Shown here in pieces: positions 53,673-58,850 of a stretch of 64,000 nt of DNA. The position numbers and the translations under genes were made by a program. The DNA is taken from NCBI GenBank assembly GCA_017999985.1, contig JAGNKU010000010.1, positions 119,387 through 183,386 of the forward strand. The letters run 5' to 3'. Position 1 is the first letter of the stretch. Every line of letters begins with the position of its first letter. Source of the stretch: Phycisphaerae bacterium (GTDB taxonomy: Bacteria; Planctomycetota; Phycisphaerae; UBA1845; Fen-1342). Under the pieces are notes generated by a model, which saw only the letters and a program-made list of their open reading frames with translations, made no database searches and had not been told where the DNA came from.

Positions 53673-54010
53673 ATAGGTGGGAACGGAATCAGCGCGCGGT
53701 GGGGCTACACGCCCGGCGGTGGGCCGCTGGGGAGAGACAGAGTATGCCCGGCCGGCGAAAGCCCGGAGTACGCGCGGGGGTAGGTGGCGGGGGCGACGGT
53801 GTACGTCGGCCACGGGAGGCCGATGGTCCGGCTCGACGGGAGCCGCGCGCTCCAGCTCGGCGGGAGCCTCGCCCTCCCTGCCAAGGGATATGGGCGAGCG
53901 ACTTCCGGTCGGTCGGCGGGACGATCGCCGCGGAGCCTCGGTCGCCCGGGCAGGGGGTTCGTGCATCGGCGGGAGTGCCGGTGCCACAGAGCTTCACCGG
54001 CGGGACGCCG
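53648..54010. other. 363-bp upstream region of dnaE2
   Basis: Holds the promoter at 53644-53672, then about 300 bases of GC-rich sequence assembled from degenerate dispersed repeats: a GGCGGGAGCCTCGCCCTCCC palindrome at about 53860-53880 and two GGCGGGA(N)GCCG(G/A)TGCCACA units at 53967-54018. The region is open in the dnaE2 frame but has no protein-like composition. No imuA, imuB or lexA gene is present. Confidence 0.5.
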
Positions 54011-54018
54011 ATGCCACA
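53967..54018. repeat. Two tandem GGCGGGA...TGCCACA repeat units overlapping the dnaE2 start codon
   Basis: Unit 1 at 53967-53988 and unit 2 at 53998-54018 match except for a one-base gap and two changes. The ATG of dnaE2 (54011) is inside unit 2. I recall this sequence as a dispersed planctomycete repeat. Confidence 0.55.
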
Positions 54019-57000
54019 TCAGGCGGCGTACGCCGAGCTGCACTGCCTGTCGAATTTCTCATTTCTGCGCGGGGCGTCGCACGCGGAGGAACTTGTCGCA
54101 CGCGCGGCAGAGTTGGGGTACGCGGCGCTTGCGATCACGGACCGCAACTCGCTCGCCGGCGTGGTGCGCGCCCACGTCGCCGCCAAAGAGCACGGCCTGC
54201 ATCTCGTCATCGGGGCGGAGATCACGCCGGTGGATGCGGCGCCCATTGTGCTGCTGGCCCCGAACCGGGTGGCTTACGGGCGGCTGGCACGGCTGATCAC
54301 ACGCGGGCGGTTGCGGTGCCGGAAGGGGGCATGCGAGATTCGGCTGGCGGACGTGGCGGAGCTGGGGAGCGGGGCCGGGTTGATTGGGATTGTTGTGCCG
54401 GCGGAAAGCCACGAAGCCACGAAGCCACGGAGCCGCGCAGGGGGAGGGCGGTGTCCGGTGGCCGCACCTGAACTGGCGGCGTTTGCGCCTTACGGCGCGT
54501 ATCGCGCCATCTTTGGGGACGACTGCTTCCTTGCGGCTGAGCTGGCTTATGACGTGCCGGATGCCGTGCGGCTTGAGCGGCTCCGCGCGCTGTCGGAGCA
54601 GACCGGGCTACCGCTCGTGGCCGCGAACGATGTGCACTACCACGTGCCCGAGCGGCGCTATTTGCAGGATGTGCTGACGTGCATTCGCGAGAAATGCACG
54701 CTCACGTCGGCGGGGCGGCGGCTGCTGGCGAATGCGGAACGGCACCTGCGGCCGCGCGACGAGATCGCGCGGCGGTACGCGCCGTATCACGAGTTGCTGC
54801 AGCGCACCGTGGACATCGCGCGGCGTTGCACGTTCAGCCTGGATGAGCTGCGCTATGAGTATCCGCACGAGCTGGTGCCGCCGGGCGTGACGGCGCACGA
54901 GTACCTGACGCGGCTGACGTGGGCGGGGGCACGCGAGCGGTATGGAAGAAGCCACGGAGCCACGGAGCCACGCAGCCACGAAGGAGAAGACGGTGGAGAT
55001 CAAGACGTTTCGCGACTTAATCGCCTGGCAGAAGGCGATGGAGCTGGCCAAACCGGTTTATCAGGTAACGACGCGGATGCCCGAGACAGAGCGCTTCGGT
55101 CTGACGGCGCCGATGCGTCGCTCGGTCGTGTCGATTCCGTCGAACATCGCCGAGGGGCACGGGTGACAGAGTCTGACGGAATACCTGCGCTTCTTGAAGA
55201 TAGCGCGCGGCTCGCTGATGGAATTGCAGACGCGGTTGCTGCTGGCGAAAGCGCTGGTGTTCATTCAGATTCCGCAGTTGCTGAACGAGCTTCAAATGGA
55301 AACCGACCGCGTACTACCGGGATTGATCTGCAGCCTGGAGAAATTGCCAGCGTAAGCTCTTCGTGGCTCCGTGGCTCCGCGGCTCCGTGGCTTCCGTCCT
55401 CGGTGCGACGCCAGCTCGACGCCGAACTCGCCCTGATCGCCGAGCTGAAATACGAGCACTACTTCCTCACCGTCTGGGACCTGGTGCGCTTTGCGCGCGA
55501 GCGCGGGATTCTGTGTCAGGGGCGCGGGTCGGCCGCGAACTCGGCGGTGTGCTATTGCCTCGGCGTCACCGCGGTCGATCCGGCGCGCATCGACCTGCTG
55601 TTCGAGCGCTTCATCAGTCGCGAACGCAACGAGCCGCCGGATATTGACATCGACTTCGAGCACGAACGGCGGGAGGAAGTGTTTCAATACATCTACGAAA
55701 AATACGGGCGCGAGCGGGCGGCGATCACCGCGGAAGTCATCAGCTATCGTCCGCGATCGGCGGTGCGCGATGTGGGTAAAGCGCTCGGTTTGTCGCTCGA
55801 TCGCGTGGATGTGTTGGCGAAGGCACTGGATTGGTGGAGTGACGAAGCCGTGCCGGAGGAAGCCTTGCGCGCAGCGGGGCTCGACCCGCAGGATCGCACG
55901 GTGCAAATGGTTGTGCGGCTGGTGCGGCAGATTTTGGGCTTTCCGCGGCACCTGTCGCAGCACGTGGGCGGGTTCGTGATCACGGAGACGCCATTGTGTG
56001 AAATCGTGCCGCTGGAAAACGGCGCGATGCCGGACCGCACCTTCATCGAATGGGATAAAAACGACATCGATGCACTGGGAATTCTCAAGGTGGATTGTCT
56101 GGCGTTGGGCATGCTGACGGCGATTGGGAAGTGCTTTGGCATGCTGCAGAGGCACGACAGGAGGGAACAGGGAACGGGGAACAGGGAACAGAGGGGGGGC
56201 GCGGGGCGAGGTCACGAGTGTCGCGCGGCGCAGCGATGTTATAGTGGCTGGGCGGCACAAATCGGAAAGGGAGCAGAAGATGACGGTGGATTATCGCGAA
56301 TTGGTTGTGTGGCAGAAGAGCATCGAACTAGCAAAGGTTGTGTATCGGCTCACACAACGCATGCCGGAGAGCGAGCGATTCGGGCTGACCAATCAGATGC
56401 GACGGGCCAGCGTCTCGATCCCGAGCAACATTGCGGAGGGCAACGCGCGGCAGTCGCGACGCGACTATTTGCACTTTCTGACGATTGCGCGGGGGTCGCT
56501 GGCCGAACTGGAGACGCAGGTGACAATCGCGGAGGCGCTGGAATTGCTGCCACGCGATTCGGATGCACGGAATCGAATCGCCGAAATCGGGCGCATATTG
56601 CAGGGACTGATCAGGAGCCTGCAGCCGGCGCGGTGAGCCGAGACACTGTTCCTTGTTCCCTGTTCCCTGTTCCCTCGTCTCTGACCGACATTCCCCCCGA
56701 AGACCCCCTTGTCTACGACATGATCTGCGCCGCCGATACCGTCGGCGTGTTCCAGATCGAAAGCCGCGCGCAGGTGTCGATGTTGCCGCGCCTCAAGCCG
56801 CGGTGCTTTTATGACCTGGTTATCGAAGTTGCGATTGTGCGGCCGGGGCCGATTCAAGGCGGGATGGTGCACCCATACCTCCGCCGGCGCGACGGGCTGG
56901 AGCCCGTGTGGTATCCGAGCCCCGCAGTGCGCGGCGTGTTGGAGAAGACGCTCGGCGTGCCGCTGTTTCAGGAACAGGTGATGCGCGTTGCGGTCGTCGC

Positions 57001-58219
57001 GGCCGGGTTCACGCCAGGCGAGGCGGACCAGTTGCGGCGGTCGATGGCGGCGTGGGGGCGCGGGGGAAAGATCGAGAGTTTCCAGATCCGACTGATCCAG
57101 GGCATGCTGGCCAACGGCTATCCGCCGGCGTTCGCGGAGCAGATCTTCAAGCAGATTCGTGGGTTCGGCGAGTACGGCTTTCCGGAGAGCCACGCGGCGT
57201 CGTTCGCGCTGCTGGTGTACGTGTCGGCGTGGCTGAAACGCTATCACCCGGCCGCGTTCACGGGGGCGATCCTGAATTCACTACCGATGGGTTTCTACGC
57301 GCCGGCACAACTGGTGCGCGATGCGCTGCGGCACGGAGTGGTGGTGTTGCCGGTGGACGTGGGGCGGAGTGGGTGGGACTGCAGCTTGGAGGAGAGGGAT
57401 CGAGGGATCGAGGGATCGAGGGATCGAGGCGAAGATGCACTGGATCGCTCAGGGACGCGTTCCCAGCCCTCGATCCCTTGTCCCCTTGATCCCTTGATCC
57501 CTGCCGTCGTCACGGCCCTCCGCCTCGGCCTCCGTCTCATTCGTGGCCTGAGCGCGGAGAAGGTCCGCGGCATCGAGGCGGCGCAGCGCGAAGGGGGCAT
57601 TACTTCGATCCATGCGCTGGCCCGCCGGCCGGATGTTTCACGCGAGACGCTGCTGCGCCTCGCGGCCGCCGACGCGTTTCGGTCGCTGGGCCTGAGTCGG
57701 CGTGCAGCGCTGTGGGAGATTCTGGCGCTCGATGATCATCCGGCACCGCTGTTTGCGGAAATGGAGCCGAGCGAGCCGCCGGCGAACCTGCCGGTAATGC
57801 CAATGGATGAGGTCGTCGTGCAGGACTACGACGCCCTGGGGCTGTCGCTGAATGCCCATCCGATCGGACTCGTCCGCGAGGAGCTGACGGCGCTGAAGGT
57901 CAGCCCATGCGAGCGGCTGCTGTCCGCGCGGGCGCGGCAGCGCATTGCGGTGGCGGGGCTGGTGACGCATCGCCAGCGACCGGGGACCGCGAAGGGGCTG
58001 GTGTTCATGACGCTGGAGGACGAGACGGGAACAGCGAACCTGATCATCCGGCCACAGGTGTGGGACCGCGATCGGCGCGTGGGGCGCGGCAAAGTGGCCC
58101 TCATTGCGGCCGGCGTCGTGGAGCGGGTCGGGGCGGTGATCCACGTGCAGGTGACGCGGCTGAGCGATCTTTCGGCACAGATCGCGCCGGTGCGCGCGAA
58201 GTCGCGGGATTTCCATTGA
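54011..58219 (+). CDS. dnaE2: Error-prone DNA polymerase DnaE2, with in-frame insertions
   Basis: C-family translesion polymerase used in damage-induced mutagenesis. The 1,402-residue frame has the PHP domain (AELHCLSNFSFLRGASHAEE), the palm acids in NEPPDIDIDFEHERREEVF and ILKVDCLALGMLTAI, QVSMLPRLKPRCFYDLVIEV, and a C-terminal OB fold (RQRIAVAGLVTHRQRPGT). Four segments have no counterpart in the family: residues 132-146, 313-461, 717-890 and 1129-1164 (about 375 residues). They coincide with repeat-bounded insertions, two of which carry four-helix-bundle genes. Without them about 1,027 residues remain, the normal length. The frame is never broken. ATG at 54011 precedes the PHP domain directly. 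No imuB neighbour is present. Confidence 0.9.
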   Translation: MPHQAAYAELHCLSNFSFLRGASHAEELVARAAELGYAALAITDRNSLAGVVRAHVAAKEHGLHLVIGAEITPVDAAPIVLLAPNRVAYGRLARLITRGRLRCRKGACEIRLADVAELGSGAGLIGIVVPAESHEATKPRSRAGGGRCPVAAPELAAFAPYGAYRAIFGDDCFLAAELAYDVPDAVRLERLRALSEQTGLPLVAANDVHYHVPERRYLQDVLTCIREKCTLTSAGRRLLANAERHLRPRDEIARRYAPYHELLQRTVDIARRCTFSLDELRYEYPHELVPPGVTAHEYLTRLTWAGARERYGRSHGATEPRSHEGEDGGDQDVSRLNRLAEGDGAGQTGLSGNDADARDRALRSDGADASLGRVDSVEHRRGARVTESDGIPALLEDSARLADGIADAVAAGESAGVHSDSAVAERASNGNRPRTTGIDLQPGEIASVSSSWLRGSAAPWLPSSVRRQLDAELALIAELKYEHYFLTVWDLVRFARERGILCQGRGSAANSAVCYCLGVTAVDPARIDLLFERFISRERNEPPDIDIDFEHERREEVFQYIYEKYGRERAAITAEVISYRPRSAVRDVGKALGLSLDRVDVLAKALDWWSDEAVPEEALRAAGLDPQDRTVQMVVRLVRQILGFPRHLSQHVGGFVITETPLCEIVPLENGAMPDRTFIEWDKNDIDALGILKVDCLALGMLTAIGKCFGMLQRHDRREQGTGNREQRGGAGRGHECRAAQRCYSGWAAQIGKGAEDDGGLSRIGCVAEEHRTSKGCVSAHTTHAGERAIRADQSDATGQRLDPEQHCGGQRAAVATRLFALSDDCAGVAGRTGDAGDNRGGAGIAATRFGCTESNRRNRAHIAGTDQEPAAGAVSRDTVPCSLFPVPSSLTDIPPEDPLVYDMICAADTVGVFQIESRAQVSMLPRLKPRCFYDLVIEVAIVRPGPIQGGMVHPYLRRRDGLEPVWYPSPAVRGVLEKTLGVPLFQEQVMRVAVVAAGFTPGEADQLRRSMAAWGRGGKIESFQIRLIQGMLANGYPPAFAEQIFKQIRGFGEYGFPESHAASFALLVYVSAWLKRYHPAAFTGAILNSLPMGFYAPAQLVRDALRHGVVVLPVDVGRSGWDCSLEERDRGIEGSRDRGEDALDRSGTRSQPSIPCPLDPLIPAVVTALRLGLRLIRGLSAEKVRGIEAAQREGGITSIHALARRPDVSRETLLRLAAADAFRSLGLSRRAALWEILALDDHPAPLFAEMEPSEPPANLPVMPMDEVVVQDYDALGLSLNAHPIGLVREELTALKVSPCERLLSARARQRIAVAGLVTHRQRPGTAKGLVFMTLEDETGTANLIIRPQVWDRDRRVGRGKVALIAAGVVERVGAVIHVQVTRLSDLSAQIAPVRAKSRDFH
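54404..54440. repeat. Solitary GCCACGAA/GCCACGGA array inside dnaE2
   Basis: Three to four units (GAAAGCCACGAAGCCACGAA, then GCCACGGAGCCGCGCAG) matching the left arm of element 1 (54948). Host residues 132-146 (ESHEATKPRSRAGGG) are absent from the family. No inverted partner nearby; may be a scar or half-element. Confidence 0.7.
54948..54983. repeat. Left inverted-repeat arm of element 1
   Basis: Thirty-six bases of 9-mer units; begins GAAGCCACGGAGCCACGGAG. Complementary to 55359-55394 at 34 of 36 positions. Confidence 0.9.
54993..55355 (+). pseudogene. Four-helix-bundle protein (23S rRNA IVP type), broken by one TGA
   Basis: Conceptual 120-codon product, starting at GTG with AAGGAG six bases upstream: EIKTFRDLIAWQKAMELAK, then RMPETERFGLTAPMRRSV and SIPSNIAEGHG. 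TGA at 55164-55166 falls where relatives have arginine (EGHG-R-QS); afterwards the frame continues QSLTEYLRFLKIARGSLMEL to TAA at 55353-55355. One CGA to TGA change would explain the break. The family (also related to Avd of diversity-generating retroelements) forms pentameric, basic four-helix bundles and was first known from intervening sequences in 23S rRNA genes. Confidence 0.85.
55359..55394. repeat. Right inverted-repeat arm of element 1
   Basis: Begins CTTCGTGGCTCCGTGGCTCC, four bases after the TAA of the four-helix-bundle frame. Pairs with 54948-54983. Confidence 0.9.
56161..56191. repeat. Left inverted-repeat arm of element 2
   Basis: Thirty-one bases of GGGAACA units; begins GAGGGAACAGGGAACGGGGA. 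Pairs with 56646-56676 at 29 of 31 positions. Confidence 0.9.
56280..56636 (+). CDS. Four-helix-bundle protein (23S rRNA intervening-sequence protein family)
   Basis: An intact 118-residue protein inside dnaE2, read in another frame. Family residues are clear: VDYRELVVWQKSIELAKVVY, RMPESERFGLTNQMRRASVS, IPSNIAEGNARQSRRDYLHF and LTIARGSLAELETQ. ATG at 56280 has AAGGGAG six bases upstream, an excellent site. A -10-like TATAGT lies 35 bases before it (56240-56245), so it may have its own transcript. Relatives bind nucleic acid in some systems (Avd with reverse transcriptase); no reverse transcriptase is in the window. Function in this setting is unknown. Confidence 0.9.
   Translation: MTVDYRELVVWQKSIELAKVVYRLTQRMPESERFGLTNQMRRASVSIPSNIAEGNARQSRRDYLHFLTIARGSLAELETQVTIAEALELLPRDSDARNRIAEIGRILQGLIRSLQPAR
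56646..56676. repeat. Right inverted-repeat arm of element 2
   Basis: Begins CTGTTCCTTGTTCCCTGTTC, nine bases after the stop codon of the four-helix-bundle gene. Confidence 0.9.
57395..57502. repeat. Element 3: inverted 8-mer arrays in dnaE2 without a gene (108 bp, 36 codons)
   Basis: Left arm 57395-57430 (AGGGATCGAGGGATCGAGGG and more) and right arm 57467-57502 are complementary at about 30 of 36 bases, with a 36-base loop. Host residues 1129-1164 (RDRGIEGSRDRGEDALDRSG and on to LDPLIP) are low-complexity and absent from other DnaE2 proteins. Same architecture as elements 1 and 2, but too small for a four-helix-bundle gene. Confidence 0.8.
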
Positions 58220-58232
58220 GCGCGAAAGGTCG

Positions 58233-58850
58233 CTACACCTCGGGGATCTTCAACTCATAGGGTTGCGTGACGTTGCAGTACCACGATCCGCCAAGGCGGC
58301 CCACCGTCGACAGCTTGTGCGGGTCGACGAGGCCATTGGCATCGAGAATCTCGTCCGCGAGGTGAATGGCGAGAATGTCGCCGAAAACGACGTTGCCGCC
58401 GCCGGGACGCTCGCCGGTGGTCACGATCTGGCGCAGGCTGCATTCGATGTTGACCGGCGCCTCCTTCACGAGCGGCGGCTGGACCTTGGTCGCGGGCACC
58501 GGCGTGAGACCACTGAAATCAAACTCACTCTGCCCGGTCGGCAGCTCCGCCGCACAACGGGTCATGGGCGTCGCGAGCGCGGCCGAGACCGTGGCGATCA
58601 CGAATTGCCCGGTAGCCTTGATGTTTTGCAACGTGTCCTTCGATTCGCCGCTGCGGCGAAACGTGGGGCAGAAGAGCACCACGGGCGGGTTGCCGGAGAC
58701 CATGTTGTAGAAGCTGAACGGCGCGAGATTGAGCTCGCCGGTCGGTGCGCGCGTGGAGACGAGGGCGATTGGGCGCGGGTTGATGAAGCCGATGCAGAGC
58801 TTGTAGACGTCACGCCACGGCTTCTGGCCGGCTTGCAGGTCGAGGTACAT
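58233..58850 (-). CDS. Flavin reductase family protein
   Basis: A 205-residue FMN-binding split-barrel protein. It opens DLQAGQKPWRDVYKLCIGFI, then NPRPIALVSTRAPTGELNLA, PFSFYNMVSGNPPVVLFCP and SGESKDTLQNIKATGQFVIA, all flavin-reductase-like segments; the NPRPIALVST and APFSFYN parts line the flavin site. Proteins of this type reduce flavin or act as small FMN-dependent enzymes; the partner is unknown. The start overlaps the 3' end of folK by 41 bp, and the gene is convergent with dnaE2, 13 bp apart. Confidence 0.85.
   Translation of the reverse strand: MYLDLQAGQKPWRDVYKLCIGFINPRPIALVSTRAPTGELNLAPFSFYNMVSGNPPVVLFCPTFRRSGESKDTLQNIKATGQFVIATVSAALATPMTRCAAELPTGQSEFDFSGLTPVPATKVQPPLVKEAPVNIECSLRQIVTTGERPGGGNVVFGDILAIHLADEILDANGLVDPHKLSTVGRLGGSWYCNVTQPYELKIPEV

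What the first reader, a model, noticed from the sequence alone, without database searches (positions are those of the whole stretch)
54011..58219. A DNA polymerase gene that hosts four repeat-bounded in-frame insertions
Seen in the sequence: dnaE2 stays open for 1,402 codons although segments of 15, 149, 174 and 36 codons have no place in the family. Each segment coincides with short-unit tandem arrays, three of them paired as inverted repeats. All lie at positions where DnaE2 has variable loops (after IVVPAE, RYG, LQRHD and CSLEE). Lengths are all multiples of three. Known: four-helix-bundle intervening sequences with inverted-repeat ends sit in 23S rRNA genes and are cut out by RNase III without ligation. 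Inference: here similar elements sit in an mRNA, so they are either translated as loops, spliced at RNA or protein level, or excised from DNA. A dedicated element that preserves the host reading frame would be new to me.
Basis: partly seen in the sequence, partly recalled or inferred. Interest (0 to 1): 0.93.

Follow-up and report, generated by a model that had tools for sequence, protein, structure and literature searches.

The report
Selfish elements nested in polymerase gene
A bacterial gene for a mutation-prone DNA polymerase holds four in-frame insertions that carry short repeat arrays, two of them also carrying a nested gene (one of the two broken) of the family found in selfish elements of ribosomal RNA genes, and the extra stretches are likely translated as floppy loops of the polymerase instead of being cut out.

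Summary
dnaE2 (54011-58219) is one open frame of 1,402 codons with inserts at four loops. Three inserts end in inverted 7- or 8-base arrays; inserts 2 and 3 hold a PF05635 (23S rRNA IVS protein) gene, broken by a TGA in insert 2. Insert 1 is a single array, insert 4 a hairpin without an ORF. Twelve of 21 DnaE2 genes compared carry a PF05635 element at the insert-3 site; 49 of the 119 listed database homologues hold one in the same phase. PF05635 genes in many phyla sit between inverted arrays (30 of 60 in the family, 23 of 78 elsewhere, 0 at shifted positions). Left and right arrays match within an element (40 of 44), differ between elements, and their units follow the PF05635 protein. The polymerase frame is open through the element in 14 of 14 DnaE2 copies but in 5 of 56 free copies. 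So selection on the host, not the element, keeps the frame; translation as a loop is the best reading, and removal from RNA or DNA is not supported. The anatomy equals that of the 23S rRNA IVS; the protein-gene host with dual coding is the new part. How it moves is unknown.

The parts
54011..58219 (+). dnaE2, error-prone DNA polymerase, one open frame of 1,402 codons with four inserts
   Evidence: core dN/dS 0.105-0.135 against four relatives at 79-83% identity
54406..54440 (+). insert 1 (site A, after IVVPAE): one array of AGCCACGA/G octamers, no partner of its own
54944..55392 (+). insert 2 (site B, after ARERY): PF05635 element, 146 codons
   Evidence: end taken from the right array
54950..54983 (+). 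left array of insert 2, unit AGCCACGG
54993..55355 (+). PF05635 ORF remnant nested in insert 2, phase +1 to dnaE2, with one in-frame TGA
   Evidence: coordinates read
55359..55392 (+). right array of insert 2, inverted copy of the left array
   Evidence: RNA fold z -6.26
56159..56677 (+). insert 3 (site C, between the DNA_pol3_alpha and finger matches): PF05635 element, 173 codons
56162..56191 (+). left array of insert 3, unit AGGGAAC
56280..56636 (+). intact PF05635 ORF (118 aa) nested in insert 3, phase +1 to dnaE2
   Evidence: PF05635 E 1.8e-36; bAvd PF22296 41.4 bits; start read
56646..56675 (+). right array of insert 3, inverted copy (CTGTTCC)
   Evidence: RNA fold z -5.36
57394..57502 (+). 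insert 4 (site D, inside the HHH_6 match): array hairpin GAGGGATC / GATCCCTT without an ORF, about 36 codons
   Evidence: RNA fold z -6.23

Best explanation
Inserts 2 and 3 of this dnaE2 gene have the anatomy of the intervening-sequence (IVS) elements known from 23S rRNA genes, a PF05635 gene or its remnant between inverted arrays of 7- or 8-base units, and all four inserts are likely selfish elements or their remnants that survived only where the polymerase frame stayed open, so that they are predicted to be translated as disordered loops. Shown: the anatomy; the same loops occupied in many relatives; arms that match within an element while units differ between elements; the polymerase phase open in 14 of 14 DnaE2 copies against 5 of 56 free copies; substitution patterns of purifying selection in the nested PF05635 frame and in the polymerase core. 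Inferred: that the whole frame is translated; that the insert is a disordered loop; that inserts 1 and 4 are remnants or array-only forms of the same kind of element; that the element is mobile (free sisters sit elsewhere in another genome); and that the PF05635 protein recognises or shapes its own array. The step that moves the element is unknown; a search of this genome found no reverse transcriptase of Pfam RVT_1, so an Avd-like route through a resident RT is unlikely here.
For: Same loops in relatives: site C holds PF05635 in 12 of 21 DnaE2 genes and site B in 2 of 21; of the 119 listed homologues (best of 8000 scored) 49 hold 52 elements in the DnaE2 frame (48 at C, 2 at B, 1 at A, 1 at D; scrambled control 0; at least four of the 119 are the same genomes as before). 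All 14 nested ORFs are in one phase. Frame: 14 of 14 against 5 of 56 free and 7 of 73 elsewhere. Nested gene: dN 0.13-0.38 against dS 1.0-2.1 in six pairs. Core dN/dS 0.09-0.23 in seven pairs, motifs PPDIDIDF and KVDCLALG present. Inverted arrays around PF05635 in 30 of 60 family copies and 23 of 78 copies from many phyla, 0 at four shifted positions. Arms match in 40 of 44 elements with arrays on both sides; mean score 23.9, highest of 2000 shuffles 8.4. Units follow the protein: Mantel r 0.40, highest of 2000 shuffles 0.16, 58 rows. PMC4990558 (abstract, passages, section 16) describes the Coxiella 23S IVS: 428 nt, S23p ORF, 28-bp terminal stem, heptamer repeats before the ORF.
Against: No transcript or peptide was seen. 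The 14 DnaE2 copies are related, so 14 of 14 is not 14 independent trials. 30 of 60 family copies and 55 of 78 others have no detected array pair, so arrays are frequent but not general (in part one-sided). The dense enrichment of arrays in dnaE2 (82 in 21 genes) is more than tolerance alone would lead one to expect, as no other array pair in a gene turned up in 849 kb of this genome. Two of the 14 nested ORFs have a stop of their own, and PMC4990558 reports that the Coxiella ORF is decaying and likely not made, unlike the selection seen here. In the DnaE2 frame the insert shows no amino-acid constraint (dN 0.37-0.68, dS 0.19-0.32), only absence of stops. The AlphaFold model of residues 458-1164 is poor over most of its length (mean pLDDT 54), so the low score and lack of structure at 729-883 are weak support.
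Confidence: 0.74

Rival explanations
1. The inserts are removed from the mRNA: the paired arms are cut by RNase III as in 23S rRNA, and the ends are joined, or the two pieces are translated into a split polymerase.
For: Arms pair as RNA (z -5.4 to -6.3); RNase III cuts the Coxiella IVS at the first heptamer, and split 23S rRNA stays functional (PMC4990558, passages).
Against: Removal would free the polymerase phase from selection, yet it is open in 14 of 14. No Rfam family, introns included, reaches its threshold in 53900-58400. A cut without joining leaves an mRNA without a stop codon (established knowledge).
Confidence: 0.08
2. The hairpins have been recruited as an expression brake: RNase III or ribosome stalling at the arms keeps a mutagenic polymerase low, and selection keeps arms paired and in frame.
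For: Arrays are 1.02 per kb in 21 dnaE2 ORFs, 0.13 in their flanks and 0.024 in 849 kb of this genome; the other hosts found are DNA methylase and restriction genes; REPs too are reported in dnaE2 and repair genes (PMC3733652, section 15).
Against: Six of the 21 dnaE2 genes have no array (G024, G026, G016, G055, G033, G020). No expression data.
Confidence: 0.1
3. The arrays are simple repeat expansions by slippage in tolerant loops; PF05635 is a chance passenger.
For: All sites are variable loops; small inserts without an ORF are common.
Against: Slippage does not give an inverted partner some 400 nt away with a PF05635 gene between; units follow the PF05635 protein.
Confidence: 0.04
4. Assembly artefact or decaying pseudogene.
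For: Draft assemblies and repeats invite errors.
Against: The same architecture at site C in 12 genera and in proteins from NCBI, JGI and ENA sources; core dN/dS 0.105-0.135 for G000 against G016, G026, G010 and G021.
Confidence: 0.02
5. DNA-level programmed excision restores a short gene in some cells.
For: Inverted arms could be recombination sites.
Against: Frame kept; no recombinase family among the hits of the nested protein; arms differ from element to element.
Confidence: 0.02

Closest known systems
23S rRNA intervening sequence (IVS) with S23p ORF, e.g. Coxiella burnetii (PMC4990558; abstract, passages, section 16 read)
   Same: PF05635/S23p ORF, terminal inverted repeats of about 28 bp, heptamer repeats before the ORF, similar length (428 nt there; inserts 2 and 3 here about 440 and 520 nt)
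   Different: host is a protein gene and not rRNA; the host reads through in another frame; unit can be 8 bases; the ORF shows purifying selection here, decay there; RNase III processing untested
Rickettsia palindromic elements and in-frame REPs (as described in PMC3733652; passages and section 15 read)
   Same: repeats inserted in frame in protein genes; DNA repair genes, dnaE2 among them, are named as hosts
   Different: as described there they encode some 20 to 82 residues and no gene of their own is mentioned; here a nested gene in another phase and tandem-array arms of variable unit
Short tandem heptamer repeats of Xanthomonas and Nostoc (PMC4692102; passages read)
   Same: G-rich heptamers, preference for four units, convergent inverted pairs in Xanthomonas
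   Different: that paper generally found no link to mobile elements and does not hold the terms 'four helix' or 'S23'; here PF05635 lies between the pairs
Avd of diversity-generating retroelements (bAvd, PF22296)
   Same: the window protein scores 41.4 bits, cut-off 40; PDB relatives 2gsc and 2rld of PF05635; PMC10053308 (passages) notes the likeness of PF05635 to Avd
   Different: no reverse transcriptase (RVT_1) found in this genome
Coding palindromes of Nematomorpha mitochondria (PMC6649704) and tandem repeats of Borgs (PMC9879509); search listings only
   Same: repeats inside coding genes
   Different: the listings mention no nested gene of a mobile element

Membership tests
IVS element | ORF of the S23p / PF05635 family | tested here: met
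   inserts 2 (broken) and 3; inserts 1 and 4 have none
IVS element | terminal inverted repeats that form a stem of about 28 bp | tested here: met
   inserts 2 and 3, also 4; insert 1 not met (single array)
IVS element | tandem heptamers before the ORF | tested here: met
   7-mers in insert 3, 8-mers in insert 2; of 53 pairs 35 have period 7, 17 period 8, 1 period 9
IVS element | located in a 23S or 16S rRNA gene | tested here: not met
   located in dnaE2. So I say 'same kind and anatomy', not '23S IVS'
IVS element | cut out by RNase III without ligation | not testable with these tools
   needs RNA
Group I/II intron | catalytic RNA core | tested here: not met
   no Rfam family over its threshold in 53900-58400
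Diversity-generating retroelement | reverse transcriptase in the genome | tested here: not met
   PF00078: 0 matches in G000 (98.65% complete), control rings in 3 of 14 genomes
RPE / REP in-frame insertion | short palindromic repeat inserted in frame in a protein gene | tested here: inconclusive
   insert 4 fits in form; the GTAG/CGTC tags of REPs were not looked for
Intein | self-splicing domain in the host frame | tested here: not met
   no intein or Hint family among the Pfam and NCBIfam hits of the protein at E 0.001; residues 745-880 found only themselves

The most novel reading that the evidence does not exclude
PF05635 elements form one large class of bacterial mobile element whose ends are arrays of 7 or 8 bases that co-evolve with the protein; the 23S rRNA IVS is only its best-known habitat. 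In dnaE2 and restriction genes such elements have been taken in again and again as nested dual-coding inserts, and their hairpins now act as an RNA-level brake on genes that damage DNA when overproduced.
Probability: 0.08. Interest if true: 0.92.

Novelty: new variant of a known kind. Interest (0 to 1): 0.76.

Why it matters
It gives the family known as '23S rRNA intervening sequence protein' a wider life: a self-contained element with co-evolving array ends, found free, on plasmids, and nested in protein genes. It links three literatures that the papers I looked at keep apart: rRNA IVSs, heptamer repeats, and in-frame repeats in repair genes. It offers a natural system of dual coding in which a likely selfish gene and a host polymerase share bases in two frames, and it makes the open question of how IVS elements move testable by comparison of full and empty sites.

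Tried and rejected
Protein search with the insert alone (window residues 745-880) found only itself; with the insert of the methylase host L187 only that protein and one other PF01555 protein of 671 aa: the DnaE2-frame sequence is not conserved, so other hosts are hard to find that way. Near-identical DNA in phages: none; PF05635 in phages by tblastn with one query: none. Reverse transcriptase in the genome: none found. Y1 transposases: seven, one of them 0.7 kb from a free element; of the seven loci one has that element's array pair, two have a single array and four none (a run of N not counted). Eight recalled 23S rRNA motifs in 146 PF05635 loci: no locus with three or more (a weak test). 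Structure prediction of residues 458-1164: mean pLDDT 54, too poor to place the insert. A first signature for PF05635 in the DnaE2 frame was too narrow (17 of 47 large site-C inserts) and was replaced by a profile (46 of 47). Papers: ten searches listed no paper that I could see to describe PF05635 elements inside protein genes; several lists were capped at 15 or 20 rows, and the library holds open-licence papers only.

On checking I corrected some ranges, one in-gene claim (L189, now marked unsure), and lowered the novel case from 0.12 to 0.08, since it cannot exceed the brake rival that it contains.
Full report
WHAT IS THERE. The window gene 54011-58219 is one open frame of 1,402 codons and an error-prone DNA polymerase, DnaE2. 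I aligned 21 DnaE2 proteins, from this genome and 20 relatives that I picked by hand (there 59 of 61 genomes have a polymerase match, DnaE1 included; fetched, aligned). G016, G026, G020, G055 and G033 have compact genes (1,061-1,101 codons from stop to stop); most others are enlarged. G000 has inserts at four places: A after IVVPAE, B after ARERY, C between the DNA_pol3_alpha match (ends at residue 698) and the finger match (starts at 891), and D inside the HHH_6 match. Three end in inverted arrays of 7 or 8 bases; insert 1 is a single array with the unit of insert 2. The arms pair as RNA (z -5.36, -6.23, -6.26). Inserts 2 and 3 hold a PF05635 gene; that of insert 2 has an in-frame TGA.

NOT CHANCE. 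The 21 DnaE2 ORFs hold 82 arrays of 7- or 8-mers (1.02 per kb), and 14 of the 21 hold at least one inverted pair; six have no array at all. Their flanks hold 6 arrays in 45 kb (0.13 per kb); one codon-shuffled copy of each ORF holds 0. In 849 kb of G000 outside dnaE2 there are 20 (0.024 per kb), and the only two inverted pairs there surround free PF05635 genes.

A WIDER ELEMENT. The family has PF05635 in 21 of 27 genomes, the order in 86 of 114. I fetched 60 copies outside dnaE2. Of these, 30 lie between inverted arrays of very diverse units; at four shifted positions in the same loci the count is 0 of 46 to 0 of 54. Six of the 26 plasmid records with PF05635, all cyanobacterial, were looked at with lower thresholds: five have a clear inverted pair of heptamer arrays; in the sixth the nearest arrays on the two sides have the same orientation, amid more arrays in both. 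Over 53 pairs the period is 7 in 35, 8 in 17 and 9 in 1; arrays have a median of 34 nt and 4.5 copies; the arms lie a median of 417 nt apart.

ARMS AND PROTEIN CO-EVOLVE. Where arrays were found on both sides without regard to matching (44 of 74 elements), 40 match as inverted copies (between elements 4.7%), mean score 23.9 against a highest mean of 8.4 in 2000 shuffles. Unit similarity follows PF05635 similarity (Mantel r 0.40; highest of 2000 shuffles 0.16; 58 rows, some with one arm only). In a tree of 72 PF05635 rows (few columns, bootstrap not settled, most forks weak) the 12 site-C copies are not one clade against the other labelled rows (0% of 200 bootstrap trees): G001's is sister to free copy L098 (99/89), and with G005, G011, the two site-B copies and free copy L097 it forms a supported group (98/91) whose arrays are of the CACGA/GACGA type; the other site-C copies have mostly GGGATC-, GGGATT- or GGGAAC-like arrays. 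Site C was thus likely occupied at least twice, and the array goes with the protein and not with the site. G021, whose sites B and C are empty, holds the two free sisters on other contigs.

THE FRAME TEST. All 14 PF05635 copies in DnaE2 genes (12 at C, 2 at B) lie in one phase. By coordinates, compared by eye, the 13 copies that one search places in DnaE2 genes of the family are all among these 14; the other is G058. The polymerase phase is stop-free through the PF05635 gene in 14 of 14. Among free copies it is open in 6 of 57 (two short copies and L096 left out); one of the six, L102, proved to lie in a restriction gene, which leaves 5 of 56. Elsewhere it is 7 of 73 (three in-gene and four short or edge copies left out; ends partly approximate). 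L097 and L098 have two stops each. Frame keeping is thus selection on the copies in genes. The copies in DnaE2 are related, so 14 of 14 overstates the number of independent trials.

TWO GENES IN ONE STRETCH. In the 12 site-C copies identity is 61% in the PF05635 frame and 33% in the DnaE2 frame; differences fall on PF05635 third positions (0.56) more than on first (0.30) and second (0.24); in six pairs the PF05635 frame has dN 0.13-0.38 and dS 1.0-2.1 (near saturation), the DnaE2 frame dN 0.37-0.68 and dS 0.19-0.32. Two of the 14 have a stop in their own frame. The polymerase core has dN/dS 0.09-0.23 in seven pairs (0.105-0.135 for G000 against G016, G026, G010 and G021), and PPDIDIDF and KVDCLALG are present (motif meaning recalled).

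IN THE DATABASES. Of the 119 listed DnaE2 homologues (the best of 8000 scored), 111 have at least 10 extra residues at one of the five sites and 49 hold 52 PF05635 elements read in the DnaE2 frame (48 C, 2 B, 1 A, 1 D); 46 of the 47 site-C inserts of 100 residues or more are of this kind; scrambled proteins give none. P0044 is named Phycisphaerae bacterium RAS1, so the window is likely from that class.

OTHER HOSTS. Four more copies lie in frame inside large genes: L190, by its sequence a DnaE2 of another planctomycete with the element at site C; L096 and L102, Eco57I/TaqI_C/MmeI-type restriction genes of two genera at the same site; L187, an N6_N4 methylase. A fifth, L189, is less sure: its frame runs into an N6 methylase-like gene, but only 47 codons precede the left array. 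All are in the same phase, but they were found by an open frame, so that is no independent test.

WHAT IT IS. The Coxiella 23S IVS has an S23p ORF, a 28-bp stem of terminal inverted repeats and heptamers before the ORF; its ORF is reported as decaying and likely not made (PMC4990558; abstract, passages and section 16 read). Inserts 2 and 3 have that anatomy in a protein gene. In-frame repeats in dnaE2 and repair genes are known for REPs (PMC3733652; passages and section 15 read), and inverted heptamer pairs for Xanthomonas (PMC4692102; passages read; PMC4679880 on heptamers of Beggiatoaceae, passages read, names no such gene either). I found no paper that joins these. I therefore call it a new variant of a known kind.

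MECHANISM. Most likely the element enters a gene, is lost by selection unless it sits in a loop in the right phase, and is then translated as a disordered stretch while its own gene stays under selection. Array turnover with transfer between arms, or selection for the stem, would keep arms matched. Transcription, translation, mobility and binding are all inferred. The strong enrichment in dnaE2 leaves room for a regulatory role of the hairpins.

Noticed in passing
L096 (G021:C332) and L102 (G010:C115): Eco57I/MmeI-type restriction genes of two genera carry a PF05635 element in frame at the same site before DPACG; L096 shows two more small array-like inserts, one before NPPY.
   Followed up: partly
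L187 1055-4546: N6_N4 DNA methylase gene of a Phycisphaerae MAG with a PF05635 element in frame and further stretches that read as QLSVVSG / LTTDN, like translated heptamer arrays.
   Followed up: partly
L268, G000:C12:12136-12474: A Y1 transposase gene lies about 0.7 kb upstream of the free PF05635 element L092; a possible helper in trans, untested.
   Followed up: partly
G000:C4:153032-153125: Two solo arrays of unlike units (CGTGGGAA, GCTGAAA) sit within 0.7 kb of the free element L115, as if elements land near one another.
   Followed up: no
G010 dnaE2 site A (L037) and G051 dnaE2 site D (L049): Inserts of 165 and 142 codons in which the motif scan found no PF05635 ORF; the first has array arms around GC-rich sequence.
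   Followed up: no
L272 (Nostoc edaphicum plasmid) and L275 (Geminocystis plasmid): PF05635 elements lie between the two ribonucleotide reductase subunit genes, and between an AAA ATPase gene and a ParB-family gene.
   Followed up: no
L277 (Pseudanabaena plasmid) 1230-2712: A PF05635 gene between cas6 and cas4 lies amid long heptamer arrays of AAAAGCT type in both orientations.
   Followed up: no
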